Shown: positions 41,130-64,000 of the stretch, one piece after another
Layout: every line of letters begins with the position of its first letter
Numbering within the stretch: the stretch's first letter is position 1
Program-made: the position numbers and the translations under genes
Notes under the pieces: model-generated
The model's database searches: none
What the model was told of the DNA's origin: nothing
Seen by the model: only the letters and a program-made list of their open reading frames with translations
DNA from: an uncultured Carboxylicivirga sp.
GTDB lineage: Bacteria; Bacteroidota; Bacteroidia; Bacteroidales; Marinilabiliaceae
Assembly (NCBI RefSeq): GCF_963668385.1
Contig: NZ_OY764327.1
Location: 1,240,001 to 1,304,000, forward strand
Reading direction: 5' to 3'
Length of the DNA: 64,000 nt

Positions 41130-41432
41130 TCTAACAATTAATAAAACCTTGATTTATCTTCCCACTAAATCTTTACAGCTAACAAATCTAATCATTAAGA
41201 CTTAAATTCAACACGAATGCAAATTTAATAATTGTAAACAGTTATTGTCAATCTATATTTTTAAACATTCATACACACAATTAAAACCTCAGGAAACAAG
41301 ACTTATAAACGATAAACATTTTTTAACCTTTAAACATTTGTACGAATATCATAACCATTTGTGTAGGTATAAATGCCTACTTTCAACATAAATTTGAAGA
41401 AGAAAAATAGTACACGAAAAATCTACAAATTT
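41130..41432. other. Divergent intergenic region between the sensor kinase and susC
   Basis: 303 bases, AT-rich. Contains the first copy of the locus-wide element, AACATTTGTAC, at 41333-41343. A second CATTTGT lies exactly 21 bases downstream (41335 and 41356), on the same helix face. A -7-like box TAAATTTG lies at 41389-41396. The frame is open up to an ATG at 41373, but the promoter elements make 41433 the better susC start. Confidence 0.55.
41333..41362 (+). promoter_or_regulatory. Candidate activator site upstream of susC (copy 1 of 3)
   Basis: AACATTTGTAC begins exactly 100 bases before the preferred susC start (41433). The same string recurs 99 and 100 bases before the GH127 and second GH146 genes. 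A CATTTGT repeat 21 bases apart suggests a direct-repeat site for a dimeric activator. No good -33 box precedes the -7 box, as expected for an activated promoter. Confidence 0.55.
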
Positions 41433-44390
41433 ATGAATGACAAAATCAAACGATCTGGAAGATCCAGTTGCAACCCTCTATCAGTTCTACTGATACTTGG
41501 GTTCTTGTTTACTTCTTCAGCTATTTTTGCCCAAAATAAAGTTGAAGGTGTAATTTACGACGAGACCCACTCTCCACTGCCGGGCGCCGCCATAATGATT
41601 AAAGGAACGTCGGAAGGTACCATCACCGACATTGATGGTCATTTTAGCATTAGTGCTGAAGCAACTGATGTATTGGTGGTTTCTTTTATTGGTTACAAAA
41701 ACTTCGAAATTTTGGTTGCCAATCAGGCATCTTTAACCATCAACTTAGAACCTGAGTCGGTTGGATTAAATGAAGTGGTTGCCATTGGTTACGGAACCCA
41801 AAAGAAGGGAGATATTACCAGTGCTATTTCAAGTGTTAAATCAGAAGATTTCTTAGCTGGTAATGTCCAAAATGCTGCAGACCTAATCAAAGGTCAGGTT
41901 GCAGGTTTGGTAATCACCAAAGCGTCGGGTAATCCCAATGCAAATTCAAGCATTAACATTAGAGGTATGGTTTCTCTAAAAGGAGGTACATCACCATTAG
42001 TTTTAGTTGATGGAATACCTGGTGATTTAAATACAGTAGCTCCTGAAAACATTGCCTCAATTGATGTATTAAAAGATGCATCTGCAGCTGCAATTTATGG
42101 AACTAGAGGGGCTGCAGGTGTAATTATTATTACAACAAAAGGGGGGAAACGGCAGGGTAAACCAGTTGTTTCATATGATGGTTACTATACTGGTTCTGAA
42201 TTCTATAAAAAAGCAGATTTTATGGGTCCAGAGGATATTCGAAATGGATTAACTAGCTTAACTGATGCCGGTTATAATACCGATTGGTTAAAAGCAATTT
42301 CTCAAAGAGCATATACCCAAAATCATAGCGTGAGTGTGAGTGGTGGAACAGAAAACGCTACTTATGCAGCTAACGTAACTTATCGTGACGAAAGAGGAAT
42401 AATAAAGTCAACAGAAAGAAATCAATTAAAAGTAAATTTCGACTTAAATCAATATTTCTTAGATGATAAATTAAAGGTAAACCTTAATATTGTAAAAGGC
42501 TTAATAAAACATGACATTTCTGATCCTGACTATGCCTATCGTCAGGCTTTAATTCGTAACCCAACTCTTCCTGTATATAACAATGATGGTACATATCGAG
42601 AAGTTGATGTATTTCAGTGCTATAATCCTGTAGCAATATTAAATGAAAAAGATGGTGAAAACCGAAGTGAATATACAAGAATTACAGGTAATTTAACTGT
42701 TGAACCAATTATGGGTTGGAAAACAAACCTAATGGTAGCAACACATCGAAGTTTTTCAAACGATAAAACCTATACCACTTCCAATTTCTACACTGCCAAA
42801 ACTGATAATAAAGTTGGAGAAGCTTATCAAAAATCTTATAACGACCAAAATGATTATTTAGAAATAACTTCTAATTACGATAAAACAATAAATAGCCACC
42901 GAATCTCTGCACTAGCAGGATATAGTTATCAAGATCATATGGAAGAAAATTTCTGGGCTTCTAACTATGGATTCCCAAGTGATTATAATTCATATAACCG
43001 AATGACAATTGGTACTGCACTTGCAGAAGGTCATGCTAGTATGGATAGTGAGAAGAAAGAAGACAAACTAATAGGATTTTTTGGTAGAGTTAGCTACGGC
43101 TATCAAAATAAGTATAATTTACTAGCTAGTATAAGACACGAAGGTTCTTCTAAATTTGGTGATAATTATAAATGGGGAAATTTCCCATCTGTTTCTTTAG
43201 GATGGACTATTAGTAATGAATCTTTTATGCAATCATTACTCTGGCTTAACAATTTAAAACTAAGAGCCGGATATGGAGTTACAGGTGTTATTCCAAAAGA
43301 TCCTTATAAATCAATTGTAAGGTATGGTTATGATGGAAGTAGTTACTATGATGGTAACAATTTTGTAAAAAGCTTAGTTATAAAATCAAATCCTAATCCC
43401 GACTTAAAATGGGAGGTTTCTAAAGAATACAATGTTGGTTTTGATTTATCTGTTTTAAACGACCGACTTGGCGTTTCAGCTAACTACTATTGGAAAACTA
43501 CAACCGATATGTTATATGATTATAGCGTTACTATTCCTCCTAACCGTTATACTGAAACCTTAGCCAATGTTGGAGAGATGCAAAACACAGGATTTGATTT
43601 TTCAATAAATGCCACTCCTGTAAAATTAAGCAAATTTGTTTGGCAAACAGTAATAACAGCAACTCACAATAAAAACAAATTAGTGAGTTTATCAAACGAC
43701 CTTTATGAAAGTAAAAACTTTTTATATACCAATTATGCAACTGATCCTATCTCTTTACCAACTCATAGAGTAGAAATTGGTCAATCTATGGGACAGTTTT
43801 ATGGTATGAAATCAGTAGGACTTACTGAAGATGGATATTGGTTAATTGAGAACCCAGAAACTGGAGAAGCAGTGAAATTTGATGAAGATGTGAAGGCCGA
43901 TCCTAAATATCGCCAATATTTAGGATCAGGACTTCCAAAAGTTACAATTGGATGGAACAATACTTTTACATACAAACAATTTGATCTAGTTACACAAATG
44001 AGTGGTCAATTTGGGCATAAAATATTAAATGCTCAACGTATGTTTTATCAAAATAATTACATTCAATACAATCGCCTTAAATCAGCAGCTGATGTAGTTT
44101 ATGGAGTAGCTCCTTTATCACAAAACTTATCACAAACTTTTGTTAGTTACTTCTTAGAAGATGGTGATTATATGAAAATGGATAATATCACTTTAGGGTA
44201 TACAATAAGGCCAAATGAATACGTTTCAAAAGTACGGTTGTATGTTTCTGTCGACAATGCTTTTGTTATAACTAATTATTCTGGTCTGGATCCTGAATTA
44301 CCAACTGACTTTAATAAAGCTGGTTTAGATGATAGGGATAAATATCCTTCAATTCGATCATTTACTGTCGGCCTAAATGTTACTTTTTAA
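41433..44390 (+). CDS. SusC/RagA-family TonB-linked outer-membrane transporter
   Basis: About 985 residues from the ATG at 41433 (alternative 41373). Signal peptide ends at AIFAQ. A carboxypeptidase-D regulatory-like domain follows (VEGVIYDETHSPLPGAAIMI...FSI). The plug comes next with the SusC signatures AIGYGTQKKGD, IRGM, LVDGIPGDL, IDVLKDASAAAIYGTRGAAG. The barrel ends in IRSFTVGLNVTF with a terminal aromatic. There is no STN domain, so no sigma/anti-sigma coupling is expected. It imports oligosaccharides or glycopeptides captured by the SusD partner, energised by TonB. It is the first gene of the locus, followed 44 bases later by susD. The distal part is visibly more AT-rich than the first 230 codons. 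Confidence 0.95.
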   Translation: MNDKIKRSGRSSCNPLSVLLILGFLFTSSAIFAQNKVEGVIYDETHSPLPGAAIMIKGTSEGTITDIDGHFSISAEATDVLVVSFIGYKNFEILVANQASLTINLEPESVGLNEVVAIGYGTQKKGDITSAISSVKSEDFLAGNVQNAADLIKGQVAGLVITKASGNPNANSSINIRGMVSLKGGTSPLVLVDGIPGDLNTVAPENIASIDVLKDASAAAIYGTRGAAGVIIITTKGGKRQGKPVVSYDGYYTGSEFYKKADFMGPEDIRNGLTSLTDAGYNTDWLKAISQRAYTQNHSVSVSGGTENATYAANVTYRDERGIIKSTERNQLKVNFDLNQYFLDDKLKVNLNIVKGLIKHDISDPDYAYRQALIRNPTLPVYNNDGTYREVDVFQCYNPVAILNEKDGENRSEYTRITGNLTVEPIMGWKTNLMVATHRSFSNDKTYTTSNFYTAKTDNKVGEAYQKSYNDQNDYLEITSNYDKTINSHRISALAGYSYQDHMEENFWASNYGFPSDYNSYNRMTIGTALAEGHASMDSEKKEDKLIGFFGRVSYGYQNKYNLLASIRHEGSSKFGDNYKWGNFPSVSLGWTISNESFMQSLLWLNNLKLRAGYGVTGVIPKDPYKSIVRYGYDGSSYYDGNNFVKSLVIKSNPNPDLKWEVSKEYNVGFDLSVLNDRLGVSANYYWKTTTDMLYDYSVTIPPNRYTETLANVGEMQNTGFDFSINATPVKLSKFVWQTVITATHNKNKLVSLSNDLYESKNFLYTNYATDPISLPTHRVEIGQSMGQFYGMKSVGLTEDGYWLIENPETGEAVKFDEDVKADPKYRQYLGSGLPKVTIGWNNTFTYKQFDLVTQMSGQFGHKILNAQRMFYQNNYIQYNRLKSAADVVYGVAPLSQNLSQTFVSYFLEDGDYMKMDNITLGYTIRPNEYVSKVRLYVSVDNAFVITNYSGLDPELPTDFNKAGLDDRDKYPSIRSFTVGLNVTF

Positions 44391-44434
44391 TTAGGCATAA
44401 CTCAATGGTTATCAAACTTGAAAATAGAAAAGAA

Positions 44435-46093
44435 ATGAAAATACATAATAGGATTAATAAGTTTCTAGCTGGTCTAATTATTTTAGTCATAAGTGTTACT
44501 TCTTGTACAGATTTAGACGAAAAACTATATAGCGAAATACCCGAAGATGGATACGAATTTACAAACGAAGACATTAATGCAATGTTTGGATCTGTATATT
44601 TAAAATTAAGGGAAACATATTGGGGATGGAATACAACTTTTGATTTATACGAGGAATCTTCTGATCTGATTATGACTCCATTAAGAATTGGTATTGGTTG
44701 GGGAGACTTATATGTTAACATGCATAAACATACATATAGTGCCACAACTGAACATTTCAATAATTTTTGGATTGCAGCATACGGAGCAGTTAGTAACTGT
44801 AACTCATTACTAGAGTACGATTTAGTAAAAAACTCCCCCTCCGCTAAAGCCGAGCTTAGAGGTGTCAGAGGTCTATGTTACTATCTTCTATTTGATAATT
44901 TTAGAAATATTCCTTTAGATACTGTATTTACACACGAAGATGGTTTTATTCCAGCCCAGGAAGATCCTCAAGTAGTCTTTGATTTTATTGAAAAAGAAAT
45001 GACATACGTAAAAAATACATTAAAAGATGAACCAATTAAATATGGTCAATTTAACTACTATGCTGCATGCATGGTTTTAGCTAAAATGTATTTAAACTAT
45101 AATGTATGGTTTGGAGCAAATGATAACACATACTATCAGAAAGCTTATGAACAAGTCAACGACATTATAAATAATGGCCCTTTTTCGTTAGCCGGATCTT
45201 ACAACGAACCTTTTTTAGCAGATGGATCGACTTGCCAAGAAGTAATCTATGGAATAGTCTTTAATTCACTATTCACTGATCCAAACAATTATCTTGCTAA
45301 CAAATGCTTATACAATGGAAGCCAGGCAACATTTGGTATTAAAGCTGAATTATGGAACGGCAGCTGCGCTGTACCACAGTTTATAGATACATATGATCCT
45401 GATGATTCAAGACTTAAAGACACATGGTTAGTAGGACCACAAGTAGATCAATCTGGTTCTCCTATAATCATAGAAGGTACTCCTCTTGTATATACGCAAA
45501 GTGTGCATAGTATTGATCTTCCGGGAGCATATTTAACTGAAGGAGCCAGATTTCATAAATATGAAATAAAAAGTGGTAATATTGGAACAAGGGATGATGA
45601 TGTTCCATTTTTTAGACTTACAGATGCGTATATGATAAAGGCCGAGTGTTTACTGCGATTAGGAGAATACAAAGGTGAAACTGAGCAAACTGCTGCTGAT
45701 ATTGTAACCATGATTCGTCAACGCGCATTTAGAAGTAATCCTTCTAAAGCAGTAAGAACAGTTGCGGAATTAAAAGGCCCTAGTGTATATAATTACGGAC
45801 ATCAGGAGAACAGAGCCGCTCAAGGAGATCCAGACAATTGGATTATTACCGAAGAAGGTGGCGATGACATTGAATTAGGTGGCTTTCTTGATGATTTAGC
45901 ATGGGAATTTGTTGGAGAACACCATCGTCGTCAAGATCTCATTAGATTTAAATTAACCAATGGAAACAGTGTATACATAGGTAAATCGAGGTTCTGTATG
46001 GATAAACATAGTGATTCCTACAAAGAAATATTTCCAATCCCTGAATTACGTATGAATGCCAACTCTAAACTTGTTCAAAACCCAGGTTATTAA
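44435..46093 (+). CDS. SusD/RagB-family surface nutrient-binding lipoprotein
   Basis: About 552 residues from the ATG at 44435; the lipobox SVTSC places the lipidated Cys at 24. An upstream ATG at 44405 would add ten residues without function. SusD features are the N-terminal tetratricopeptide-like helices (AELRGVRGLCYYLLFDNF), FRLTDAYMIKAECLLRLGEY, LDDLAWEFVGEHHRRQDLIRF and the C-terminal KEIFPIPELRMNANSKLVQNPGY. It caps the SusC barrel at the cell surface. Very low GC compared with the hydrolase genes further on. Confidence 0.95.
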   Translation: MKIHNRINKFLAGLIILVISVTSCTDLDEKLYSEIPEDGYEFTNEDINAMFGSVYLKLRETYWGWNTTFDLYEESSDLIMTPLRIGIGWGDLYVNMHKHTYSATTEHFNNFWIAAYGAVSNCNSLLEYDLVKNSPSAKAELRGVRGLCYYLLFDNFRNIPLDTVFTHEDGFIPAQEDPQVVFDFIEKEMTYVKNTLKDEPIKYGQFNYYAACMVLAKMYLNYNVWFGANDNTYYQKAYEQVNDIINNGPFSLAGSYNEPFLADGSTCQEVIYGIVFNSLFTDPNNYLANKCLYNGSQATFGIKAELWNGSCAVPQFIDTYDPDDSRLKDTWLVGPQVDQSGSPIIIEGTPLVYTQSVHSIDLPGAYLTEGARFHKYEIKSGNIGTRDDDVPFFRLTDAYMIKAECLLRLGEYKGETEQTAADIVTMIRQRAFRSNPSKAVRTVAELKGPSVYNYGHQENRAAQGDPDNWIITEEGGDDIELGGFLDDLAWEFVGEHHRRQDLIRFKLTNGNSVYIGKSRFCMDKHSDSYKEIFPIPELRMNANSKLVQNPGY

Positions 46094-46113
46094 TTCTTAT
46101 TTAAAAGTGTAAT

Positions 46114-47121
46114 ATGAAAAAGATAAATATATATTTTCTGGCAACCTGCTTTTTAATAGGCCTGTATAGCTGTGAAGACTATGATGATTATTCCAGCAAA
46201 CGAGTATATGCCGAAAATGAAAACCCTTACTTAAGGATTGATGCAGATGCTACGATTATAAATGAAACTGAATTTGAAGTGGGGCGATTTGCGCCTCACA
46301 CCATTCCGTTGGAAGACTACTCAGAGGTATTCGAAGCCGAAATGGGAATGACTGTCGACCAGGTAATAAGTGGCCTTAAAAACGGAACTGTTCTATTTTA
46401 TAATATTAATTTAAGTAAAAACATCTGGAATAAAGCTCCTAAAACAAAAGGTTCTACAGGATGGTATTATAATACTTCTGGTGTTATTTCATCTGAAGGA
46501 GACGAGAATTTAACTGCTACCGTTGAAATTGACGAAAACAGTAAATCAATAGTTGTAGATGTTTTAGACGAAGCGATTGCTGGAACAAACTATGCTATTA
46601 ATGTTGGATTTGCTGTAGATGGACCCGATTACGATAAATATGTTCGTTTTGTGTTTAATCTTTCAATAACAGATCCTTCTCTAATCATCACAAATTTAAA
46701 TATCCCAACAGGCGATTATGCTGCAGCAAGTATTGATTTAACACAATATGCTGATGTTATTGAATACAATATCGGAATGCCATTGGATGAGTTTGTAAAA
46801 AGTTTCGATCACAATGAAGAAGGACCAATTCATATGTATATGGTTGATGTTACTGATCCTGCAAACCCTGTATGGGATTTAGAAAGTGGATATACTGCAA
46901 ACGCACCTGGATATTGGTTAGATGCTTCAATGAAAGTATGTAGCTGGGGCGATACTGGTTTTTCTCTATTTACAGAAACAGACCTTGGCGGCAAACTTCT
47001 CAACATTGGTAGAGCACCAGGAATTTCAGCAGGAACAAAATATAAACTTTGTATTGGTTTTAAAAATACAACTGATGATACTAAATTCTTTAGATTTATT
47101 ATAACAGCAACCCTCGAATAG
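46114..47121 (+). CDS. Surface lipoprotein with two DUF4859 repeats (putative glycan-binding protein)
   Basis: 335 residues. Lipobox LYSC gives lipidation at Cys20. Two tandem units are seen: about 55-190 (ETEFEVGRFAPHTIPLEDYSE, then GTNYAINVGFAVDG) and about 195-335 (NIPTGDYAAASIDLTQYADV, then GTKYKLCIGFKNTT). Both match the DUF4859 pattern and also resemble the C-terminal domain of the next protein. The position after SusD is where surface glycan-binding proteins are encoded. No catalytic residues. It may bind glycan or protein backbone outside the cell. Confidence 0.75.
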   Translation: MKKINIYFLATCFLIGLYSCEDYDDYSSKRVYAENENPYLRIDADATIINETEFEVGRFAPHTIPLEDYSEVFEAEMGMTVDQVISGLKNGTVLFYNINLSKNIWNKAPKTKGSTGWYYNTSGVISSEGDENLTATVEIDENSKSIVVDVLDEAIAGTNYAINVGFAVDGPDYDKYVRFVFNLSITDPSLIITNLNIPTGDYAAASIDLTQYADVIEYNIGMPLDEFVKSFDHNEEGPIHMYMVDVTDPANPVWDLESGYTANAPGYWLDASMKVCSWGDTGFSLFTETDLGGKLLNIGRAPGISAGTKYKLCIGFKNTTDDTKFFRFIITATLE

Positions 47122-47127
47122 AATTAA

Positions 47128-49161
47128 ATGAATGTCATAAAACTTAATAAGCAAAAGCCGGTATATACCGGCTTTTGTATCTTACCTGCTATCGTGTTAT
47201 TATTACTTATAATTTCATGTGGAAAGAACAATACCGTTATAGCTCAAAATCCTGATCCTATACAGGATACAACAAAAGTAGAGTCTGATGTTGTTATTTT
47301 AAAAGAGGATGATGTTGAGAATTACAACAAATACTACAAGCCAGCCGAGATGGCAGATATGGATATACTTCGAAGCGATAGTAAATGGTCGTTTGTGCGA
47401 AGTAAGCAATCTGAACACTTTTTCGTTTTTTGGGAAGCCGGTTTTGGTGATAATCCCAACTCAAGCGATTTAGATGAATCAATGAGAGTTGATATAGATG
47501 ACCTACTTGAAAAGGCTGAAGGTTTCTTTAAAAGCAATATCAACAACTTAAAATTTGCTGATTTAGGTACATCGAAGACCAACCTGGATACTTACAAAAT
47601 GCAAATTTATTTGCATTACACCACCGAATGGATGGCTTATGGAGCCGGTTACGACGATGTCATCGGAGCATTATGGGTTAATCCGGCAACATGCAAGCCT
47701 GTTGGTTCTGTTATTGCCCACGAAATTGGTCATAGCTTTCAATACCAGGTATATGCCGATTTAATACACCATGGAGGAGCAAGCAACGACTTTACGCGTG
47801 GTTTCCGATACGGTTTTGGAGGAAACGGAGGAAACACTTTTTGGGAACAAACGGCACAATGGCAAGCTTTTCAAAGCTATCCAATGGAAGCCTTTACAGC
47901 TTATTATTTCCCAAATTACTGTGCTAATTATCATCGTCATATTTGTCACGAAAATCAACGCTATGCTAGTTACTGGATTCATTATTACTGGACTGATAAA
48001 CATGGAATTGATGCCGTAGCTAAAGTTTGGAAAGAATCGGTAAGTCCCGAGGATCCAATTGAAACATATATGCGCATTTATAATTTAAGTGTTGATGATT
48101 TGAATGCTGAGTTATACGATGCTGCCACTAAGTTTGTAACATGGGATTTGGATGCCATACGTACAAACGGTGCCGATTTTATTGGATTGTTTCAATATAA
48201 ACTTTTCCGTTTAAGCGATGATAGTTATCAGGTGGCTTACAGTAATTGTCCGGGCACAACGGGTTACAATGTTATTCCACTAAATATTCCTGATGCCGGC
48301 ACAACCATAACCACAACCTTTACAGGTTTACCAACAGGATCAGCATTGGCACCAAATGATCCCGGAACATATACAGATGGCGAAGAATCATCAACAACAT
48401 CTAATTATAATCAAAGCGTAGCAGACAGAGCAGGATGGCGTTATGGATACGTAGCCTTATTACAGGATGGTACCCGCAAATACAGTGAGATGTATAGTCA
48501 AGCATCAGCCAATGTAGATTTTACAGTTCCCGAAAATTGCGAACGCTTATGGTTTGTGGTGTTAGGTGCACCTAATACATATAAGGCTCACCCTTGGGAT
48601 GAAAAAGAAAGTAATGATGACCAATGGCCATACAAAGTTAAATTTACCAATACCGATCTATTGGGTAACATTTATATTGATCCGAACCAAAAACCGGAAA
48701 GCATCAACCTTTCATATAAGGTAGCTGTTCCTTTGGATAATAACGAATATACCCGTACAACTTTAAATTTAAACAGTACTGGTGATATTTCTAAATTGGC
48801 CAAAGCATTATCAATGCAGGCATCAGAAATAAGCACTCATATGCTGGCTGCAAAAGAAAGTCCAACAGAAGGTAAAATAGCCTTTGCTGCCATTGAACCA
48901 GATGAATCACTAACATATGAAACCACAAGTAATGGTTATGGATTTTGGTTCGACAGCAATAGTAAAACCACAAAATGGGGTGAGGATAATGACAGTAAAA
49001 TATTCTGTGAATTTGATCCATCGGGTATGCAATTTGCAATGGGACAGTTCCCGGGCAAATGTACCAAAGGTGACTCATATCAGATAAAAGAAGCATTGAT
49101 TTACACCAAAGATGGCACCCAATACCAAATCACTTTTGTGTTTAATATTACCATCGAATAA
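47128..49161 (+). CDS. Putative zinc-metallopeptidase lipoprotein (DUF6055-like, HEIGH) with C-terminal DUF4859
   Basis: 677 residues; lipobox IISC puts the lipidated Cys near 31. The catalytic-like domain (about 80-370) contains WSFVRSKQSEHFFVFWEAGFG and VIAHEIGHSFQYQV with H198-E199-x-x-H202. The candidate third ligand is E240 in FWEQTAQW. A middle beta-rich part (370-520) is followed by a DUF4859 domain (530-677) shared with the preceding lipoprotein. This suggests a surface zinc peptidase or glycopeptidase of the locus, but activity is not proven for the DUF6055-like group. Its first codons lie inside a perfect terminator-like palindrome. Confidence 0.72.
   Translation: MNVIKLNKQKPVYTGFCILPAIVLLLLIISCGKNNTVIAQNPDPIQDTTKVESDVVILKEDDVENYNKYYKPAEMADMDILRSDSKWSFVRSKQSEHFFVFWEAGFGDNPNSSDLDESMRVDIDDLLEKAEGFFKSNINNLKFADLGTSKTNLDTYKMQIYLHYTTEWMAYGAGYDDVIGALWVNPATCKPVGSVIAHEIGHSFQYQVYADLIHHGGASNDFTRGFRYGFGGNGGNTFWEQTAQWQAFQSYPMEAFTAYYFPNYCANYHRHICHENQRYASYWIHYYWTDKHGIDAVAKVWKESVSPEDPIETYMRIYNLSVDDLNAELYDAATKFVTWDLDAIRTNGADFIGLFQYKLFRLSDDSYQVAYSNCPGTTGYNVIPLNIPDAGTTITTTFTGLPTGSALAPNDPGTYTDGEESSTTSNYNQSVADRAGWRYGYVALLQDGTRKYSEMYSQASANVDFTVPENCERLWFVVLGAPNTYKAHPWDEKESNDDQWPYKVKFTNTDLLGNIYIDPNQKPESINLSYKVAVPLDNNEYTRTTLNLNSTGDISKLAKALSMQASEISTHMLAAKESPTEGKIAFAAIEPDESLTYETTSNGYGFWFDSNSKTTKWGEDNDSKIFCEFDPSGMQFAMGQFPGKCTKGDSYQIKEALIYTKDGTQYQITFVFNITIE
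47152..47177 (+). promoter_or_regulatory. Perfect 26-bp palindrome (terminator/attenuator-like) inside the start of the HEIGH gene
   Basis: CAAAAGCCGGTA-TA-TACCGGCTTTTG: 12-bp perfect arms, with a GC core and an A/T-tract on each side, as in an intrinsic terminator. It starts 31 bases after the stop of the DUF4859 lipoprotein gene and encodes residues QKPVYTGF of the HEIGH protein. Ribosomes translating the start region would melt it, so it may act as an attenuator or stabilise the susCD-SGBP message. Confidence 0.6.
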
Positions 49162-49166
49162 TATTT

Positions 49167-49256: not shown

Positions 49257-49340
49257 GATTAATGAAAACGTGACATTAAAAATACCATACCGCCCATATA
49301 TTTACCTTCATAAACTTTGAATCATCAAAAAATAAATACA

Positions 49341-54297: not shown

Positions 54298-55131
54298 ATG
54301 AATATAAAATTGATTTTACTTTTAGGTGTGATGATGAGTGTTTTAGTTTCATCATCATACGCCAAAAACAAAAAGAAATGTAACTGCGCTTCGGATAAGT
54401 ATACCATAACAGCGCCACCCGCATCACTAAATCTCGATCCTTTTTATAAAAAATATGCCAATGTAAATGGGATTCAAATAATGAGTTCGTGGAGGGTGCC
54501 CGATTCGGCTTTTGTAAAGGCATGTGAAATCATCGATTTTATGACAGGTGACTTACCTGATGATGTATTGAATCAAATGGTAAAAGTAGGGGCGCGTTTA
54601 GGCATTATGGCTCGTTACGAAGGCACAACTGATATACCAGAACATGCCGATTTGGCTAACGACACAACCATAAACTGGGATGTTCGTGCCCGAGGCTTAG
54701 GTGGTGATATGGATTTGCCATTAACTACTTGCGCTGAAGAAAATCTACTTTGCTACCAGATTGATAAGTACCATGCAGAGGATATTACCATTCACGAATT
54801 TGCTCATGCAATTCACCTGATTGGTATTGCTCCCATTGATGATACTTTTAACGATACGCTTCAAAAACTATTGGATAAAGCTATTGCTGATGGTAAGTAC
54901 AAAAACACATATGCTGCCTCTAATCTTTACGAATACTGGGCCGAAGGCGTTCAAAACTGGTTTAATGTGAATGCCGAGGTAGCTGAGCCGGATGGAAAGC
55001 ACAATTGGGTAAATACTCGTGATGATATGAAGAAATACGATCCTGATCTATATAAACTGGTCAGCAAGTATTTTTCCGATTTCAAACAAAGTCCGTCTTG
55101 CCATAGTGCACAAAATCTTTATACAGAGTAA
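54298..55131 (+). CDS. Secreted zinc metallopeptidase-like protein (HEFAH)
   Basis: 277 residues; signal peptide ends at SYA. A small domain has TIHEFAHAIHLIG with H166-E167-x-x-H170 and, 46 residues on, YEYWAEGVQNWF supplying E216 as a gluzincin-like third ligand. I do not recognise a named family, although the pattern is of a compact secreted metallopeptidase. Many Cys residues (CNCAS, TTCAEENLLCYQ, SPSCHS) suggest disulfides. It is embedded between arabinofuranosidase genes, 43 bases after GH127 and 15 bases before GH146, so it is part of the same transcript. A peptide-backbone substrate is likely. Confidence 0.75.
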   Translation: MNIKLILLLGVMMSVLVSSSYAKNKKKCNCASDKYTITAPPASLNLDPFYKKYANVNGIQIMSSWRVPDSAFVKACEIIDFMTGDLPDDVLNQMVKVGARLGIMARYEGTTDIPEHADLANDTTINWDVRARGLGGDMDLPLTTCAEENLLCYQIDKYHAEDITIHEFAHAIHLIGIAPIDDTFNDTLQKLLDKAIADGKYKNTYAASNLYEYWAEGVQNWFNVNAEVAEPDGKHNWVNTRDDMKKYDPDLYKLVSKYFSDFKQSPSCHSAQNLYTE

Positions 55132-57589: not shown

Positions 57590-57610
57590 AAACGAATAAG
57601 TATTTGATCC

Positions 57611-59389
57611 ATGGGAAATATTATAAAGAATCGTCTGCAACAGCTTAGAAAAGAGATGAAAAACAAAGGAATCGCAGCCTGGTATATGTCTGGTTCCGAT
57701 CCTCATCAAAGCGAATACATGCCTAACCATTGGCAAATACGCGAATTTATAAGTGGTTTTAATGGTTCGATGGGTTTTATGGTAGTTACCTTAAATGAAG
57801 CCGCTTTATGGACCGATTCGAGATATTTTCTGCAAGCAGCCAACCAACTGGAAGGAACCGGTATTCAATTAATGAAATTCAGGATTGAAGGTACTCCCAG
57901 CCCTGCTCAATGGATCAGCAGTCAAATAACATCCGATCAATTGGCTGGAACCGATGCTACATGTATTTCCTTTGCGGCTTTTGAAGCCTTACAGGCAGAA
58001 TTATCAGAATATGATATTAAGCTTACTGATTGTGGCGACTTACTTACTTCTTTCTGGACAGATCGACCAGAATTACCGATGAATCCAATAATTGAGCACG
58101 AGGTTAATTATGCTGGCTATTCACGCGCTGAAAAGATGGATCAGATTAGAAATCATCTGACTGAAAAGAAAGCAGACTCTATTCTCTTAAGTGCCCTGGA
58201 TGATCTTGCCTGGACTTTCAACCTTCGTGGAAACGATGTTGATTTTAACCCTGTTTTTATAGCATTTGCGCTCGTCAGTAAAACATCGTGCACCTTGTAT
58301 GTCAATCAGGCTAAATTATCTGATTCATTAAAGAATAAATTGAAAAACGAAGGCATCAACCTATTACCATATGGGAATATTTATAATGACATTAGTAGTA
58401 TTAAAGGTAAAATTCTAATTGATCCCGACCGGATTAATTACGCTTTAAAAAATGCATTAAGCATAGACGCCAAAGTTGAAAATACCTTATCAATTGCAGC
58501 TATTTTAAAAGCCATCAAATCAGAACATGAAATCAGAATGTTTGAAATTGCCATGCAAAAAGATGGCGTTGCCATGGTGAAGTTTCTGTACTGGCTCAAT
58601 CAAACAGCAGGTGTTGAAAATATCACTGAATATGATGTTCTTTTGAAGTTAAAAGAATTCAGAGCTCAGCAAGAGAATTTTATGGGAGCCAGTTTTCATT
58701 CCATTGTTGGTTATAACGGAAATGGAGCAGTAGTGCATCGTTCAGTAACACCCGAAACAGCAGCTTCTATCACCAATGATGGTATCCTGTTATTTGATTC
58801 GGGAGGTCAGTATTTAGAAGGAACCACAGACATAACTCGCACTGTTTGTTTGGGTAATCCTACTGAATTAGCCAAGGAAGATTTTACCATCACTTTAAAA
58901 GGCACCATTGGTCTGGCAGAGTTGAAATTTCCGGCCAATACTTTGGGTTGTAATCTCGATTTAGCAGCTCGACATGCAATGTGGCAAACGGCACGGAATT
59001 ATGGTCATGGAACGGCTCACGGAATTGGATTCTTTCTGAATGTACATGAAGGTCCAATGAGCATCCGCCAAGAATTTAACGATCGAGTTATTGAACCCGG
59101 TATGGTAATGTCAGATGAGCCAGCATTTTATCGTGAAGGTTTATATGGCATCAGAACAGAGAATGTGATGGTTTGTAAAGAGTGGGTAACCAATGAATAC
59201 GGTCGATTCTTGCAATTTGAAACTCTAACGCTTTGCCCCATCGACACCAAACTAATTGAGAAAAGCTTGTTAAGCAATGCCGAAATTGAATGGATTAATC
59301 AATATCATGAGCAATGCTACCAAAAGCTTTCTTCTGAATTAAATGAAGAGGAAAAAACATATTTAAAAGAAATAACACAAGCGATCTAA
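57611..59389 (+). CDS. pepP: Xaa-Pro aminopeptidase (aminopeptidase P, M24B)
   Basis: 592 residues without signal peptide, so cytoplasmic. Two creatinase-N-like domains (about 5-300) precede the pita-bread M24 domain. Metal ligands are D396 (LLFDSGGQYL), D407 (GTTDITRT), H470 (GTAHGIGFFLNVHEGP), E503 (MSDEPAFYREG) and E517 (IRTENVMV). A short C-terminal extension follows. The length matches the long XPNPEP1-like form. It releases the N-terminal residue of X-Pro (and often X-Hyp) peptides. Its site between the two GH146 genes, in a hydrolase locus, suggests it finishes proline- or hydroxyproline-rich peptides imported by SusCD. Confidence 0.93.
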   Translation: MGNIIKNRLQQLRKEMKNKGIAAWYMSGSDPHQSEYMPNHWQIREFISGFNGSMGFMVVTLNEAALWTDSRYFLQAANQLEGTGIQLMKFRIEGTPSPAQWISSQITSDQLAGTDATCISFAAFEALQAELSEYDIKLTDCGDLLTSFWTDRPELPMNPIIEHEVNYAGYSRAEKMDQIRNHLTEKKADSILLSALDDLAWTFNLRGNDVDFNPVFIAFALVSKTSCTLYVNQAKLSDSLKNKLKNEGINLLPYGNIYNDISSIKGKILIDPDRINYALKNALSIDAKVENTLSIAAILKAIKSEHEIRMFEIAMQKDGVAMVKFLYWLNQTAGVENITEYDVLLKLKEFRAQQENFMGASFHSIVGYNGNGAVVHRSVTPETAASITNDGILLFDSGGQYLEGTTDITRTVCLGNPTELAKEDFTITLKGTIGLAELKFPANTLGCNLDLAARHAMWQTARNYGHGTAHGIGFFLNVHEGPMSIRQEFNDRVIEPGMVMSDEPAFYREGLYGIRTENVMVCKEWVTNEYGRFLQFETLTLCPIDTKLIEKSLLSNAEIEWINQYHEQCYQKLSSELNEEEKTYLKEITQAI

Positions 59390-59431
59390 TCTCTTTATTT
59401 ATTCATTTTCAGTAACGATTGAATTGACCTG

Positions 59432-59446
59432 AACATTTGTACTAGT
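59432..59446 (+). promoter_or_regulatory. Candidate activator site upstream of the second GH146 gene (copy 3 of 3)
   Basis: AACATTTGTACTAGT, identical to 49242-49256, begins exactly 100 bases before the ATG at 59532. A weaker -7-like TAATTTTT lies at 59479-59486. Confidence 0.65.
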
Positions 59447-59531
59447 TATTTAAACGCCAATGACAGTGGTTGCCGTAATAATTTTTCTTCTTCACATTGA
59501 GAAAAATCAGTAATCCAGGAAACAATAACAT

Positions 59532-61904
59532 ATGTACAAATTTTCACCAACCCATATACTTAGGAAGTCATCATTTATTGCGGCTACTTTTTTAGTATTC
59601 GTTACAGTCTCTTGTAATAATGAGAAAAACAAAGTGATAGATTCAATGAAACCGCAAGCTGAGTTGTTTTCAATTAAAGATGTAAAACTTCTGGATGGTC
59701 CTTTCTATAAAGCCACAGAGTTAGGAGAGAAGACACTGCTGGCTTATGAACCCGATCGTTTTTTGGCCCGATTCCGAACCAATGCAGGGTTGGAACCAAA
59801 GGCTGAGCACTACGAAGGCTGGGAAGGTGAATCACTGGCTGGTCACAGTATTGGCCATTACATGACGGCTCTGAGTCAGATGTATCAAACCACCGGCGAC
59901 GAAGAGCTTTTGAATCGTGCCAATTACATTGTGGATGAACTGGCTTTATGCCAAGCTCAAAGCTCAACCGGCTTTATCGGAGCTTTTAAAGATACCGAAA
60001 GGGTATTAACAGAAGAAGTGGCCAAAGGACAAATTAAAGCCCAAGGCTTTAACCTTAACGGATTATGGTCTCCATTTTACACCATTCATAAAATAATGGA
60101 TGGATTGTTTCATGTTTATAAGCTATGTGATAATAAGAAAGCTCTTGAAGTTGATAAGAATTTAGCCCTTTGGGTTGGTCAAATCGTAAAAGATTTAAAC
60201 GATGAGCAATTACAGGAGATGCTTCACTGCGAGTTTGGTGGAATACCTGAAACATTTCTTGATTTATATGGCGAAACAGGTGATCGTGTTTATCTTGATT
60301 ATTCTAACAAATTCAGACATAAAGCCATTGTTGATCCAATTATTGATAATAACGATATACTGGCCGGTAAGCATGCAAATACACAAATCCCTAAGTTTTT
60401 AGCTTTAGCACGCAGCTACGAGTTAACCGGCGATGTTAAAGACTACAACGGAGCTGTTAACTTCTGGAATATGATGGTACATCATCATGCATATGTGGCC
60501 GGAGACTTTGATAATTACGAATATTTGTACGAGCCAGATCAGTTAAACGATCAGTTAAGCAACAGTACAGCAGAAACTTGTTGTGTATACAATATGCTTA
60601 AGTTAACAAGACATCTTTTCCAATGGAATCCATCAGCTGAGGTACTTGATTACTACGAAAGAGCCTTAATTAACCACATCCTATCATCACAAAATCCCGA
60701 GGATGGTCGAGTTATTTACCATTTATCCCTCGACATGGGAGGTTATAAGGTTTACGAAGATCCACATGGTTTTACTTGTTGTGTAGGTTCAGGAATGGAG
60801 AATCATGCCAAGTATGCCCAAAATATTTATTATCATTCTCAAGATGAATTATTTGTTGGACAATTCATCGCATCGGAAGTTAATTGGAAGGAAAAAGGTT
60901 TTCGTTTAAAACAAACCACCTTATTTCCCGAAGAGGAAGGTACGACATTAGAGATACTGACTGATAAAAATGAAATTAAAAACACCTCAATAAAAGTTCG
61001 TTACCCTGCATGGGCAACTGAAGGATTTAACATCAGCATTAATGGCAAAGCATTGGCAATTGACACACAACCAGGATCATTTATCAATTTAGGTGACACT
61101 TGGAAAAATGGTGACCTGATTAAAATTGATATGCCGTTTAACTTACATACCGAGTCGATGCCGGACAACAAAAACAGAATAGCCATCTTCAATGGCCCTG
61201 TTTTATTAGCTGGAGTTCTTGGACCTGAGAATGATCCGAAAATTGCTGATCCTTTATATGTTCCGGTTTTAATGACGAAAGATGCCGACCCTGCGAGCTG
61301 GCTAGTTGAATCAGATAAAGATTTTAATACGTTCAAATTAACCGATATTGCTCAACCCAGATCGGTTGAACTGCAACCTTTCTATCGTACAAATAACTGT
61401 ACATACACAGTATATTGGGATTCATATACTCCAAACGAATGGAAGCATCAGCAAAAGAAATACAAAGAAGAACAGGCTAAAAAGAAAGAACTGGATCTAA
61501 AAACCATTGATCTGTTTCGATTGGGAGAGATGCAGCCCGAGCGCGACCATAACTTTAAAGAAGAAGCATCGTGGGTAGGCGAATATAAATCGAGAAAATA
61601 CCGCGAAATACCAAAGGAAGGTTTTGCCTCGTTTGAAATGGCTATTGATCCATCGCAAACCAATTCGTTGGTTTTTGAATATTGGGGTGGGTTTGCCGGA
61701 AGTCACACCTTTGATATTGCAGTTGAAGGCACTGTTATTGCCACCGAAAATATTACCAATATGGCTCCTGGGAAATTTATCAATGTAACCTATGATCTTC
61801 CGGAGAACCTGATTGATAATAAAAGCAAAATCAAAGTAGAGTTGTTGCCTCACGATGGGCATCGAGCAGGACCGGTTTTTGCTGTTAGAACCATTAAATC
61901 ATAA
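59532..61904 (+). CDS. GH146-like beta-L-arabinofuranosidase (lipoprotein), second copy
   Basis: 790 residues; lipobox TVSC. Colinear with the product at 55147-57510 (shared LLAYEPDRFLARFR, GLEPKAEHY, GHSIGHYMTALSQMY, GDEELLNRANYIVDEL, GKHANTQIPKF). Active-site blocks are STAETCCVYNMLKLTRHLF (E348/C350) and GFTCCVGSGMENHAKY (C416/C417), with the same DUF6805-like C-terminal region (HDGHRAGPVFAVRTI). The extra Cys after ETC (ETCC) is a difference from its paralogue. It heads its own unit with the third copy of the locus element, followed 41 bases later by GH43. Confidence 0.9.
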   Translation: MYKFSPTHILRKSSFIAATFLVFVTVSCNNEKNKVIDSMKPQAELFSIKDVKLLDGPFYKATELGEKTLLAYEPDRFLARFRTNAGLEPKAEHYEGWEGESLAGHSIGHYMTALSQMYQTTGDEELLNRANYIVDELALCQAQSSTGFIGAFKDTERVLTEEVAKGQIKAQGFNLNGLWSPFYTIHKIMDGLFHVYKLCDNKKALEVDKNLALWVGQIVKDLNDEQLQEMLHCEFGGIPETFLDLYGETGDRVYLDYSNKFRHKAIVDPIIDNNDILAGKHANTQIPKFLALARSYELTGDVKDYNGAVNFWNMMVHHHAYVAGDFDNYEYLYEPDQLNDQLSNSTAETCCVYNMLKLTRHLFQWNPSAEVLDYYERALINHILSSQNPEDGRVIYHLSLDMGGYKVYEDPHGFTCCVGSGMENHAKYAQNIYYHSQDELFVGQFIASEVNWKEKGFRLKQTTLFPEEEGTTLEILTDKNEIKNTSIKVRYPAWATEGFNISINGKALAIDTQPGSFINLGDTWKNGDLIKIDMPFNLHTESMPDNKNRIAIFNGPVLLAGVLGPENDPKIADPLYVPVLMTKDADPASWLVESDKDFNTFKLTDIAQPRSVELQPFYRTNNCTYTVYWDSYTPNEWKHQQKKYKEEQAKKKELDLKTIDLFRLGEMQPERDHNFKEEASWVGEYKSRKYREIPKEGFASFEMAIDPSQTNSLVFEYWGGFAGSHTFDIAVEGTVIATENITNMAPGKFINVTYDLPENLIDNKSKIKVELLPHDGHRAGPVFAVRTIKS

Positions 61905-61945
61905 TCGCCAATTAACCAATAAAAATCATCAATCATCCAAAGCAT

Positions 61946-64000
61946 ATGAATAAGCACTTCATCCAACTTATTGTATTTGTAATTATTTCGGCTGTTGCTC
62001 AGGCGCAATCGCCCCATATGAACTCCGAAAATGGCAACCCTCTCATACCCGGATATTTTGCCGATCCAACCATCAAAAAGTTTGATGACACCTATTACAT
62101 TTATGCAACCAGCGATGGAGTAAAATTGGCTTCGGGCGAGCCATCGGTTTGGATAAGTAAGGATTTAGTTAATTGGTACAACCAGGAGATGACTCTGGAT
62201 TTACCCGAAGGATTAACCAACTGTTGGGCTCCGGATGTTGTTAAAGGCGATGACGGAAAATATTACTACTACATGGGTAATTGCCAGTTTGGGTGTAACA
62301 TTTATGGCTATGTTTCGGATTCACCAACCGGACCATGGAAGCCGGTTAACGACGGAAAGGCTGTTATTCCTGTTGGAACCAGTAAAGAGTATTTACCAGC
62401 TTTGGATGCACAGTTTTTTAAAGATGATGATGGATCGTTGTACAGCTATTTTGGTACCTGGTGTACATCGTTTAAAGGCATGGGCTGGGTTAAACTCAAT
62501 CAGGATGATATGTTTACCATCGAAGAGGATGGATTTATTCCTATTGAGCAGATTCCGCAGGCTTTCGAAGCCGCTTATCCACTTAAAAAAGATAGCATTT
62601 ACTTTTTGATGTATTCGGCCGGCGATTGTCGTCTAAGCACCTATTCGGTGCATTATGCATGGTCTCGCTCACCTGAAGGCCCCTGGAATTATGGTAAGAA
62701 CAATCCTATTCTGGAAACATCTGAAGATGGCCTGATCCATTCTCCCGGACATCATTCTGTGTTAGAAGAAGATGGCGAGTACTATATTTTCTATCACCGA
62801 CATGATAATCCGCACAGTTCAGGCGGTGAATTCCGTCAGGTTTGTATGGATCGCATGGTATTTTCCGATCCTTATACCATCGAAAAAGTAGATGCAAGTC
62901 ACGAAGGCGTTTGTATCAATACAGATAAAAAACAACCTAAGAATCTGGCTTTCGGGGCAAAGGCATCAGCAACTTCGTATTACCACTTACAAGCTCAAGT
63001 CAACCGATATACCGAAAAAGAAACCGACTACATGTATCTTCCTCAGCTGGCAACAGATGATAATAACGGAACTATCTGGAAGGCCTCAAGCAGCTCTTTA
63101 CCTCAATCATTGGTAATCGATTTAGCCAAGAAACAGTCCATCAAAAGAGTAATGACTGAGTTTGAATACTCAACCTATTTCTATCAATATAAAATAGAAA
63201 CTTCTTTGGATAGTATTAACTGGAATGTATTCGCGGATCGCACACAAAACAAACAAAGTGGATGTCCAATAATCGATGATAATAATACCGATGCCAGATA
63301 TGTTAAGATTACAGTAACTGGAACCGAGAAAGCAGGATTATATGCAGCCATCTGGAATGTAAAAGTTTATGATGAGTTGTTTGAAACTCCGGAACTTAAT
63401 CATCATATTCAAACTGTTGAAGCCGGAAGTACCAATCAAAAGGGACTATTGGTTGATTTTAATGTTCAAAAGCTAAAAACCAAGAAGATCAAGCTGTTTA
63501 AAAATAAAGGTTTGATGGAGGGTGATTTTGTTTTACATGGTGATGCCTCATTAACCACTATTGATGGTGTTAAAGCCGTTCAATTGGAGGGAAAAGGATA
63601 TTATGAACTTACTGCACAACCAGCCAAAAGTCTGAACTGGAATTCTCCATTTACGGCATCAGCATGGGTGAACGTACCTGAGTTACAAAATGGTGATTGT
63701 ATTATTAAATGGAACTCACGCGATAACATGCTACAATCTTCGTACGCAGCAATGATGTTTGGTAACGGCCCGTTTGGTACCATTGCTCATGGCGACGGAT
63801 CAGTTGATATGGGTTTTAAACAACCACCATCTGCTAATCAATGGCATCATGTTGTTGTTACTTTCGATGGTATGAAAGAAAGCATTTATGTTGATGGCAA
63901 ACTGGACAGAGAATTACCACTAATGCTTTTTGTTGAAAGCGACACTGTACTTATTGGTGGATCAGGTTTTGATATGGAGAACTTTAAAGGATTCATTGCC
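61946..64000 (+). CDS. GH43 glycosidase with discoidin and LamG-like domains (runs off the window end)
   Basis: The frame is open from the ATG at 61946 to the window edge (685 codons). Signal peptide ends at AQAQ. The GH43 five-bladed propeller (about 30-340) has the base D40 (GYFADPTIKKF), pKa modulator D154 (PALDAQFFKDDDG) and acid E208 (AFEAAYPLKKD). About 350-500 looks like a discoidin/CBM32 module (LATDDNNGTIWKA, SLPQSLVIDLAKKQSIKRV, ARYVKITVTG). From about 530 a LamG/concanavalin module begins (PFTASAWVNVPELQNGDCII, WHHVVVTFDGMKESIYVDGK). Likely an arabinosidase or galactosidase/xylosidase; the linkage cannot be fixed by eye. It is probably co-transcribed with the second GH146. Confidence 0.88.
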   Translation, partial: MNKHFIQLIVFVIISAVAQAQSPHMNSENGNPLIPGYFADPTIKKFDDTYYIYATSDGVKLASGEPSVWISKDLVNWYNQEMTLDLPEGLTNCWAPDVVKGDDGKYYYYMGNCQFGCNIYGYVSDSPTGPWKPVNDGKAVIPVGTSKEYLPALDAQFFKDDDGSLYSYFGTWCTSFKGMGWVKLNQDDMFTIEEDGFIPIEQIPQAFEAAYPLKKDSIYFLMYSAGDCRLSTYSVHYAWSRSPEGPWNYGKNNPILETSEDGLIHSPGHHSVLEEDGEYYIFYHRHDNPHSSGGEFRQVCMDRMVFSDPYTIEKVDASHEGVCINTDKKQPKNLAFGAKASATSYYHLQAQVNRYTEKETDYMYLPQLATDDNNGTIWKASSSSLPQSLVIDLAKKQSIKRVMTEFEYSTYFYQYKIETSLDSINWNVFADRTQNKQSGCPIIDDNNTDARYVKITVTGTEKAGLYAAIWNVKVYDELFETPELNHHIQTVEAGSTNQKGLLVDFNVQKLKTKKIKLFKNKGLMEGDFVLHGDASLTTIDGVKAVQLEGKGYYELTAQPAKSLNWNSPFTASAWVNVPELQNGDCIIKWNSRDNMLQSSYAAMMFGNGPFGTIAHGDGSVDMGFKQPPSANQWHHVVVTFDGMKESIYVDGKLDRELPLMLFVESDTVLIGGSGFDMENFKGFIA

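What the first reader, a model, noticed from the sequence alone, without database searches (positions are those of the whole stretch)
41333..64000. A beta-L-arabinofuranose locus with its own peptidases: candidate hydroxyproline-rich glycoprotein (extensin/AGP) utilisation system
Seen: one SusCD pair, two GH127, two GH146, a GH43, a surface HEIGH lipoprotein, a secreted HEFAH protein and a long Xaa-Pro aminopeptidase, all on one strand. Known: GH127 HypBA1-type enzymes release beta-L-arabinofuranose from Hyp-linked arabino-oligosaccharides, and aminopeptidase P cleaves X-Pro bonds. Inference: the set would strip arabinosides from Hyp residues, cut the backbone outside, import glycopeptides and finish X-Pro/X-Hyp peptides inside. 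A simple arabinan locus would not need two peptidases and a proline-specific aminopeptidase.
Basis: partly seen in the sequence, partly recalled or inferred. Interest (0 to 1): 0.82.

Follow-up and report, generated by a model that had tools for sequence, protein, structure and literature searches.

The report
Gene cluster for eating plant extensins
A Bacteroidota genome carries a long operon that looks built to strip sugars from, cut up and import the hydroxyproline-rich structural glycoproteins of plant and green-algal cell walls, and some relatives carry such genes next to the pathway that burns hydroxyproline.

Summary
From 41373 to 7.6 kb past the window, 14 plus-strand genes run together (gaps 6-155 bp): SusCD, DUF4859 protein, DUF6055-DUF4859 metallopeptidase (HEIGH), two GH127, HEFAH metallopeptidase, GH146, aminopeptidase P, GH146, GH43, HTCS regulator, second DUF6055 peptidase, GH97 alpha-galactosidase relative. 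No pectin lyase, GH51 or recognised endo-arabinanase follows. The reading is supported. DUF6055 is related to Svx, a peptidase reported to cleave extensin. Extensin bears short beta-arabinosides on hydroxyproline (Hyp) and alpha-galactose on serine; the run has candidate enzymes for both. DUF6055 is rare (8 of 395 class genomes). Of the 80 closest DUF6055 loci, 43 have GH127/146 within 10 kb (control stretches 1 of 40). In Mangrovibacterium marinum, Marinilabiliales UBA12394 and Proteiniphilum UBA1403 similar clusters include Hyp degradation genes. Natural fusions join the HEFAH peptidase to GH27, GH97 or DPP-IV. Against: no activity data, no structure prediction; 24 of 69 long loci lack every marker scored; 10 of 48 DUF6055 genomes searched showed neither Hyp route over cut-off. 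My searches listed no paper describing a SusCD locus for extensin.

The parts
41373..44390 (+). SusC-type TonB-dependent transporter
   Evidence: TIGR04056 728.5 bits, cut-off 368
44405..46093 (+). SusD-type glycan-binding lipoprotein
   Evidence: PF07980 5e-19, PF14322; lipobox VTSC
46114..47121 (+). DUF4859 protein after SusD; lipoprotein-like by eye (the script's lipobox pattern did not match); candidate binder of the glycoprotein (inference)
   Evidence: PF16151 7e-19; N-terminus
47128..49161 (+). DUF6055 + DUF4859, Svx-related metallopeptidase, HEIGH 198-202, invariant E240, lipobox IISC; candidate extensin glycopeptidase
   Evidence: PF19527 2e-161; NF040510 Svx 1.3e-19, below its cut-off; invariant H198 E199 H202 E240 in 51 rows; lipobox
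49317..51737 (+). GH127 beta-L-arabinofuranosidase, very close to solved chain 6ex6 (taken to be BT3674 from recall)
   Evidence: PF07944 1e-122; 1091 bits to 6ex6; motif
51852..54254 (+). GH127 beta-L-arabinofuranosidase, lipoprotein-like N-terminus by eye
   Evidence: PF07944 2e-116; motif and N-terminus
54298..55131 (+). HEFAH metallopeptidase with a signal-like N-terminus, family weakly M34/ATLF-like at the zinc site; candidate Pro/Hyp-region endopeptidase (inference)
   Evidence: 12-row alignment with invariant HExxH and EYxAE; ATLF in 4 of 12 members, not the window's own; natural fusions to GH27, GH97 and DPP-IV in relatives
55147..57510 (+). GH146-type beta-L-arabinofuranosidase
   Evidence: PF07944 5e-122; best solved match 5opj, 511 bits; that 5opj is the GH146 BT0349 is recalled
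57611..59389 (+). aminopeptidase P (M24), no signal sequence seen, one of two copies in the genome
   Evidence: PF16189/PF00557/PF16188; second copy
59532..61904 (+). GH146-type beta-L-arabinofuranosidase, lipoprotein-like N-terminus by eye
   Evidence: PF07944 4e-110 with the same C-terminal domains as the protein at 55147; motif
61946..64000 (+). GH43 + F5/8-type + LamG-type protein, cut by the window end (gene ends at 64084)
   Evidence: PF04616 2e-48. Past the window, in window coordinates: HTCS 64181-68245, second DUF6055 peptidase (HELGH) 68352-69695, GH97 69711-71654

Best explanation
A SusCD-type utilisation locus for hydroxyproline-rich glycoproteins of the extensin kind. Proposed working: the outer-membrane SusCD and DUF4859 proteins hold the glycoprotein; the GH43 removes the alpha-1,3-arabinofuranose cap and the two GH127 and two GH146 enzymes take beta-arabinofuranoses off Hyp; the GH97 removes alpha-galactose from serine; the two DUF6055 (Svx-related) peptidases and the HEFAH peptidase cut the backbone; SusCD imports glycopeptides; aminopeptidase P finishes X-Pro/X-Hyp peptides in the cytoplasm. 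Arabinose and Hyp are used as carbon (in this genome Hyp perhaps by the dehydratase HypD, encoded elsewhere). Shown here by sequence: gene set, motifs, operon layout, recurrence of the set, linkage to Hyp catabolism in relatives. Inferred: substrate, order of steps, cell location, bonds cut.
For: Gene families and motifs. 51 of 51 aligned DUF6055 proteins match the Svx model; Svx is reported to cleave extensin and to need a domain thought to recognise arabinosides (PMC13164431, Results and first part of Discussion read). Same 14-gene order in Marinilabiliaceae A049 and, with a CotH gene inserted, Carboxylicivirga linearis. The 80 closest DUF6055 loci against 40 control stretches of 20 kb from 19 of the same genomes: GH127/146 43/80 v 1/40, DUF4859 39/80 v 0/40, DPP-IV 15/80 v 0/40, GH27 or GH97 13/80 v 0/40. 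4-hydroxyproline epimerase over cut-off in 30 of 48 DUF6055 genomes (from 49 of the 80 loci) v 11 of 198 of a class draw, within 25 kb of DUF6055 in 7 of 30 (0.42 expected). HypD within 25 kb in 3 of 10 (0.23 expected). Clusters joining these peptidases, arabinofuranosidase-family genes and Hyp genes in Mangrovibacterium marinum, Marinilabiliales UBA12394, Proteiniphilum UBA1403 and G065. Own genome has HypD, 1194.5 bits, cut-off 1100.
Against: No biochemical or expression data. 24 of 69 loci of 17 kb or more show none of GH127/146, alpha-galactosidase family, DPP-IV, HEFAH or Hyp epimerase within 10 kb, and at that scale the epimerase itself is not enriched (2/80 v 0/40). 10 of 48 DUF6055 genomes have neither epimerase nor HypD over cut-off, among them the Bacteroides and Prevotella types searched. 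The window's DUF6055 scores 70 bits against a 625-bit Svx cut-off, and Pfam finds no acyltransferase-like domain in it; by hand count the W-G...N sugar-site residues reported for Svx are not at the same offsets from the zinc motif. The window locus itself has no Hyp genes; HypD is about 1.8 Mb away. BT3674, recalled as the close GH127 relative, is reported to act in larch arabinogalactan breakdown (PMC10850190 passage). No GH121. The tests are not corrected for relatedness, controls are not matched for order, and the neighbourhood label is clustered on the DUF6055 tree.
Confidence: 0.8

Rival explanations
1. An arabinogalactan-protein (AGP) locus: the GH127/GH43 enzymes trim arabinose decorations of type II arabinogalactan and the peptidases open the AGP core.
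For: GH127 at 49317 is very close to 6ex6 (taken to be BT3674 from recall), and BT3674 is reported to act with exo-galactanases on larch arabinogalactan (PMC10850190 passage). Hyp catabolism would fit AGP too. GH42 genes lie beside the cluster in C. linearis and inside it in G065.
Against: No galactanase, glucuronidase or rhamnosidase family was recognised in the 14-gene run, unless the GH43, whose subfamily is not assigned, is one. An alpha-galactosidase relative plus beta-arabinosidases matches extensin better.
Confidence: 0.11
2. A pectic arabinan or RG-II side-chain locus that happens to carry peptidases.
For: GH146 BT0349 comes from an RG-I locus (PMC10850190 passage). All four GH127/146 proteins match the aceric acid hydrolase model NF049879, below its cut-off. 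A GH51 and arabinose-isomerase-like genes stand near DUF6055 in Sinomicrobium.
Against: No GH51, pectin lyase or recognised endo-arabinanase in the run. It does not explain two Svx-related peptidases, the extra aminopeptidase P, the alpha-galactosidase relative, or Hyp catabolic genes in relatives.
Confidence: 0.05
3. A general glycoprotein or mucin-like scavenging locus in which DUF6055 is an M60-like O-glycopeptidase with no preference for Hyp.
For: HExGH zinc motif; the Svx papers liken the active site to an M60 mucin peptidase (PMC9266454 passages); 24 of 69 long loci lack the markers scored.
Against: No family for GalNAc, fucose or sialic acid was recognised in the run. Svx did not degrade porcine mucin (PMC13164431). 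Hyp genes are linked in relatives.
Confidence: 0.04

Closest known systems
Bifidobacterium longum HypBA1/HypBA2/HypAA (GH127/GH121/GH43) and Bll4HypBA1 (GH146), and the Xanthomonas XeHyp enzymes (PMC10850190 passages, PMC6085000 abstract, PMC7263609 start of abstract in a listing)
   Same: Removes beta-arabino-oligosaccharides from hydroxyproline with GH127/146 and GH43.
   Different: In what I saw, those systems take only the sugar: no SusCD, no Svx-like or HEFAH peptidases, no alpha-galactosidase, no Hyp catabolism. GH121 is absent here.
Svx peptidase of soft-rot bacteria (PMC9266454 passages and section 2.1; PMC13164431 Results and part of Discussion)
   Same: Related peptidase with HExxH and a downstream Glu; extensin cleavage reported for Svx.
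   Different: Svx is a lone secreted virulence enzyme with an acyltransferase-like domain. Here the peptidase has a lipobox, carries DUF4859 and sits in a SusCD locus. The Svx survey lists only proteobacterial relatives, at 40.81% identity or more, so it could not have shown Bacteroidota.
Bacteroides arabinogalactan and pectin loci with BT3674, BT0349 (context partly recalled; passages in PMC10850190)
   Same: SusCD loci with GH127, GH146 and GH43 (recalled).
   Different: No glycopeptidases, aminopeptidase P or Hyp link known to me; the galactanases or arabinanases of those loci were not recognised here.
Bacterial hydroxyproline catabolism (4-Hyp epimerase route; HypD dehydratase route; pathways recalled)
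   Same: The same gene families are linked to DUF6055 in some relatives.
   Different: Use of free Hyp is known; its physical link to a glycoprotein-degrading SusCD locus was in none of the papers my searches listed.

Membership tests
SusCD polysaccharide utilisation locus | adjacent SusC and SusD with co-directional degrading enzymes | tested here: met
   14 genes, 13 gaps of 6-155 bp
SusCD polysaccharide utilisation locus | linked sensor-regulator | tested here: met
   HTCS just past the window, L008:4181-8245
HRGP arabino-oligosaccharide degradation (Hyp system) | GH127/GH146 with Zn-cysteine catalytic motif | tested here: met
   four of four proteins
HRGP arabino-oligosaccharide degradation (Hyp system) | GH121 arabinobiosidase HypBA2 | tested here: not met
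   only a weak match of a C-terminal region of the first GH127 to the HypBA2 model, 23 bits
HRGP arabino-oligosaccharide degradation (Hyp system) | GH43 of the HypAA type | tested here: inconclusive
   GH43 present, subfamily not assigned; nearest solved 5msx and 3qz4
HRGP arabino-oligosaccharide degradation (Hyp system) | activity on Araf-beta-Hyp | not testable with these tools
   needs enzyme assays
Svx family (NF040510) | curated score cut-off 625 bits | tested here: not met
   70.3 bits; related, not a member
Svx family (NF040510) | HExxH zinc motif with downstream glutamate | tested here: met
   H198 E199 H202 E240 invariant in 51 rows; the spacing to E240 (37) is longer than in Svx (22)
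Svx family (NF040510) | acyltransferase-like (left-handed beta-helix) domain | tested here: inconclusive
   Pfam finds DUF4859 at the C-terminus and no such domain; structure prediction not obtained
M34/ATLF-type metallopeptidases (HEFAH protein) | Pfam PF07737 curated cut-off | tested here: not met
   no match of the window protein at E 1; 4 of 12 members match at E 1; the two whose scores I saw have 22.5 and 24.4 bits, cut-off 27.4
Retaining GH97 alpha-galactosidase | close to 3a24 with nucleophile Asp kept | tested here: met
   540 bits, KIDFIDRDDQ aligned with KVDFMDRDDQ; role of the Asp recalled
Pectic arabinan locus | GH51 or endo-arabinanase in the operon | tested here: not met
   no GH51 and no recognised endo-arabinanase in the 14 genes; GH43 subfamily not assigned
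AGP locus | exo/endo-beta-galactanases | tested here: inconclusive
   no galactanase family recognised, but the GH43 subfamily is not assigned

The most novel reading that the evidence does not exclude
DUF6055 peptidases mark a widespread class of loci in Bacteroidota (by record titles and recall: marine, soil, termite, rumen and human-associated species) that use plant and algal hydroxyproline-rich glycoproteins from sugar coat to backbone amino acid. In these loci DUF4859 is an arabinosyl-Hyp-binding module that plays the part of the Svx acyltransferase-like domain, and the HEFAH family is a new peptidase for alpha-galactosylated, Pro/Hyp-rich peptides.
Probability: 0.42. Interest if true: 0.85.

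Novelty: new variant of a known kind. Interest (0 to 1): 0.73.

Why it matters
Extensins are major structural proteins of plant cell walls (recalled), and how microbes recycle them is little known. A locus that couples deglycosylation, glycopeptidases, import and, in relatives, Hyp catabolism makes the question testable in named, cultured species, gives probable functions to three poorly known families (DUF6055, DUF4859, the HEFAH family) and would provide enzymes for wall-protein analysis and for feed or fibre processing.

Tried and rejected
Arabinan/RG-II and AGP readings were weighed and set lower because the genes that mark them were not recognised in the run and because Hyp genes are linked in relatives. 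The aminopeptidase P as a mere housekeeping gene was weighed: the genome has a second copy and the gene keeps its place in two relatives, so it is probably part of the operon; over the 80 loci M24 genes are not enriched (5/80 v 1/40). Solved-structure searches with DUF6055 gave nothing; with HEFAH only weak hits. A literature search for extensin with SusC was useless because 'susc' matched 'susceptible'; one for Pro-Pro endopeptidase with lethal factor and M34 gave no paper. The HEFAH family is not confined to DUF6055 genomes: in the class draw 2 of its 5 holders also have DUF6055.
Full report
Observation. The window is bases 1240001-1304000 of a 6.27 Mb single-contig genome. Its DUF6055 peptidase is nearest to those of Carboxylicivirga linearis and Marinilabiliaceae A049. 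From 41373 the + strand carries SusC, SusD, a DUF4859 protein, a DUF6055-DUF4859 protein with HEIGH, two GH127, a HEFAH protein, a GH146, an aminopeptidase P, a second GH146 and a GH43 that the window cuts. Past the window the same strand goes on with a hybrid two-component regulator, a second DUF6055 protein (HELGH) and a GH97; then come opposite-strand genes, among them ones that look like recJ, lipB and lipA (named by eye). The 13 gaps between the 14 genes are 6-155 bp.

Enzymes. All four GH127/146 proteins keep E-x-C and a CC pair about 65 residues on, the zinc and cysteine ligands given for this clan (PMC10850190 passages). The first GH127 scores 1091 bits against solved chain 6ex6, and the first GH146 is closest to 5opj; that these chains are BT3674 and BT0349 is recalled. 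The GH97 is closest to 3a24, named alpha-galactosidase, and keeps the Asp of KxDFxDRDDQ. The GH43 is closest to 5msx and 3qz4. The aminopeptidase P shows no signal sequence by eye and is one of two copies in the genome.

Peptidases. The HEIGH protein belongs to PF19527 (DUF6055), a name found in one paper of the library, on a fungal degradome (listing only). It matches the Svx model NF040510 at E 1.3e-19, far below the family cut-off, and 51 of 51 aligned proteins, own included, match that model. They are relatives, not members. Svx was reported in 2026 to degrade carrot extensin but not porcine mucin or concanavalin A, and to lose this when its second domain is removed (PMC13164431, Results and first part of Discussion read). 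The same paper gives the extensin side chains: alpha-L-Araf(1-3)-beta-L-Araf(1-2)-beta-L-Araf(1-2)-beta-L-Araf on Hyp, and alpha-galactose on Ser. The operon has a candidate enzyme for each of these bonds. By hand count the residues W136, G137 and N171 described for the Svx sugar site are not at the same offsets from the zinc motif in DUF6055, and the zinc-motif-to-Glu spacing differs, which speaks against an identical site. The HEFAH protein has no Pfam match of its own at E 1; among 12 aligned members 4 match ATLF (best 2.6e-5) and 8 match M90 (best 0.00098) at E 1, and a profile search touches the zinc site of M34 enzymes only (E 0.0024). In relatives it is naturally fused to GH27 (Paludibacter STB_36, L182:2428-4383), to GH97 (G073, L029:673-3393) and to DPP-IV (Bacteroidales AS09scLD_223, L046:707-3673). 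That ties it to alpha-galactose removal and prolyl peptide processing. It is not confined to such genomes: of 5 holders in 395 class genomes, 2 also have DUF6055.

Recurrence. DUF6055 is rare: 8 of 395 genomes drawn from the class, own included (E 1e-20 or better). Of the 7 others, 5 have a GH127/146-family gene within 20 kb. Within flanks of up to 10 kb, by phmmer at 60 bits to reference proteins from the window and its relatives, against 40 control stretches of 20 kb placed at round coordinates in 19 of the same genomes, away from DUF6055: GH127/146 43/80 v 1/40, SusD 53/80 v 1/40, SusC 65/80 v 12/40, DUF4859 39/80 v 0/40, GH43 21/80 v 2/40, CotH 20/80 v 0/40, DPP-IV 15/80 v 0/40, GH27 or GH97 13/80 v 0/40, HEFAH 11/80 v 0/40, DUF5695 11/80 v 0/40. 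Of the 13, 8 are GH97, and only two of those score over 500 bits to the window's, so some may be other GH97 types; GH97 alone has P 0.051. Some loci are cut by contig ends (69 of 80 are 17 kb or longer). Against the reading: 24 of those 69 have none of five marker groups, many of them in Sphingobacteriaceae and Flavobacteriaceae. The Hyp epimerase (2/80 v 0/40), M24 (5/80 v 1/40), GH51 (4/80 v 0/40) and arabinose isomerase (2/80 v 0/40) are not enriched at this scale. The tests ignore relatedness, the controls come mostly from isolates with large contigs and are not matched for order, and the GH127/146 label is clustered on the DUF6055 tree (51 rows, 7 changes v 16 in shuffles). In Marinilabiliaceae A049 the 14 genes keep their order and the same downstream flank (by eye); in C. 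linearis they keep it with a CotH gene inserted, SusC being seen in L049.

Hydroxyproline link. In Salegentibacter salinarum (L082) and Galbibacter (L059) SusCD and DUF6055, without GH127/146 within 10 kb, stand next to a 4-hydroxyproline epimerase (597.9 bits in L082, cut-off 376), with genes like D-amino-acid dehydrogenase, a DapA-type enzyme and 2,5-dioxovalerate dehydrogenase; in L082 these last three are below their models' cut-offs and are named by context. I searched the genomes of 49 of the 80 loci (48 genomes) and the own genome: the epimerase is over cut-off in 30 of 48, and absent from the own genome, against 11 of 198 of a class draw; Fisher P 2.8e-17, not corrected for relatedness. 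It lies within 25 kb of a DUF6055 gene in 7 of 30, 0.42 expected (P 1.5e-7), and within 15 kb in 3 of 30, 0.25 expected; the 25 kb limit was chosen after seeing the places, and genome sizes are rounded. The dehydratase HypD is over cut-off in 10 of 20 genomes searched: 8 of the 18 that lack an epimerase over cut-off, plus the 2 close relatives A049 and C. linearis. In 3 of the 10 it is within 25 kb of a DUF6055 match, 0.23 expected, one of the three being a DUF6055 fragment. So 10 of 48 genomes showed neither route over cut-off, including the Bacteroides, Prevotella and Segatella types searched; there only the sugar may be used, or another route. Clusters that join peptidases, glycosidases and Hyp genes: Mangrovibacterium marinum (SusC, SusD, DUF4859, DUF6055, CotH, two GH127, GH27, DPP-IV, HEFAH, GH146, an aldehyde dehydrogenase, an AMP_N-type M24 peptidase, AraC, then the four Hyp genes); Marinilabiliales UBA12394 (SusCD, DUF4859, DUF6055, GH43, two GH127, DPP-IV, GH97, HEFAH, second DUF6055, HypD with activase, M24); Proteiniphilum UBA1403 (DUF6055, GH43, HEFAH, SusCD, DPP-IV, a weak GH146 relative, HypD with activase, M24, no alpha-galactosidase seen); and unnamed G065 (DUF6055, GH36, M24, GH43, GH42, a weak GH146 relative, DPP-IV, Hyp genes, SusCD). 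The own genome has HypD with an activase-like neighbour (by eye), far from the window.

Mechanism. Most likely the cell binds extensin-type glycoprotein at the surface, removes arabinose and galactose, cuts the backbone with Svx-related and HEFAH peptidases, imports peptides and uses arabinose and Hyp. The gene facts are shown; substrate, order, location and bonds are inferred. AGP is the main rival.

Literature. Searches for extensin, hydroxyproline, Bacteroides, GH127 and GH146 in threes (20 of 30 papers listed), for extensin with polysaccharide utilisation loci and hydroxyproline (3 papers), for HRGP with Bacteroidetes and arabinofuranosidase, for extensin with Bacteroidota and peptidase and with SusD listed no paper that, by title and start of abstract, describes such a locus. 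PMC4454575 (passages) infers HRGP use in Latescibacteria from GH127 and other glycosidases. Only open-licence PMC papers are in the library, so this is no proof of novelty. The Svx survey names only proteobacterial relatives, at 40.81% identity or more (section 2.1 read).

Verdict. It is a new variant of a known kind, a SusCD locus, with a protein-glycan target not found described. Structure prediction was not obtained (and others), so no fold claim is made.

Noticed in passing
L042:13482-16184, L174:114-2816, L033:8550-11240: DUF5695 (PF18951, about 900 aa, no known function) recurs in 11 of 80 DUF6055 neighbourhoods and 0 of 40 controls; a candidate new enzyme of glycoprotein breakdown.
   Followed up: partly
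L048:11973-13349, L119:14085-15401: A CotH kinase-like gene occurs in 20 of 80 DUF6055 loci, in Carboxylicivirga linearis directly after DUF6055, but is missing from the window locus.
   Followed up: partly
L094, L071: DUF6055 loci also occur in Segatella buccae and Bacteroides mediterraneensis, so use of wall glycoproteins may reach the mouth or gut (ecology recalled).
   Followed up: no
window 39456-41129 (-): A histidine kinase with a solute-binding-type sensor domain lies divergently upstream of SusC; relation to the locus unknown.
   Followed up: no
L118:154-6253: In Carboxylicivirga linearis a 1339-aa GH127-containing protein and a GH42 lie just beyond the cluster, possibly a second arabinogalactan-type locus.
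   Followed up: no
L065, L067: In Sinomicrobium, DUF6055 stands beside an arabinose-isomerase-like gene, and in L067 a GH51, with no GH127/146 match within 10 kb.
   Followed up: no
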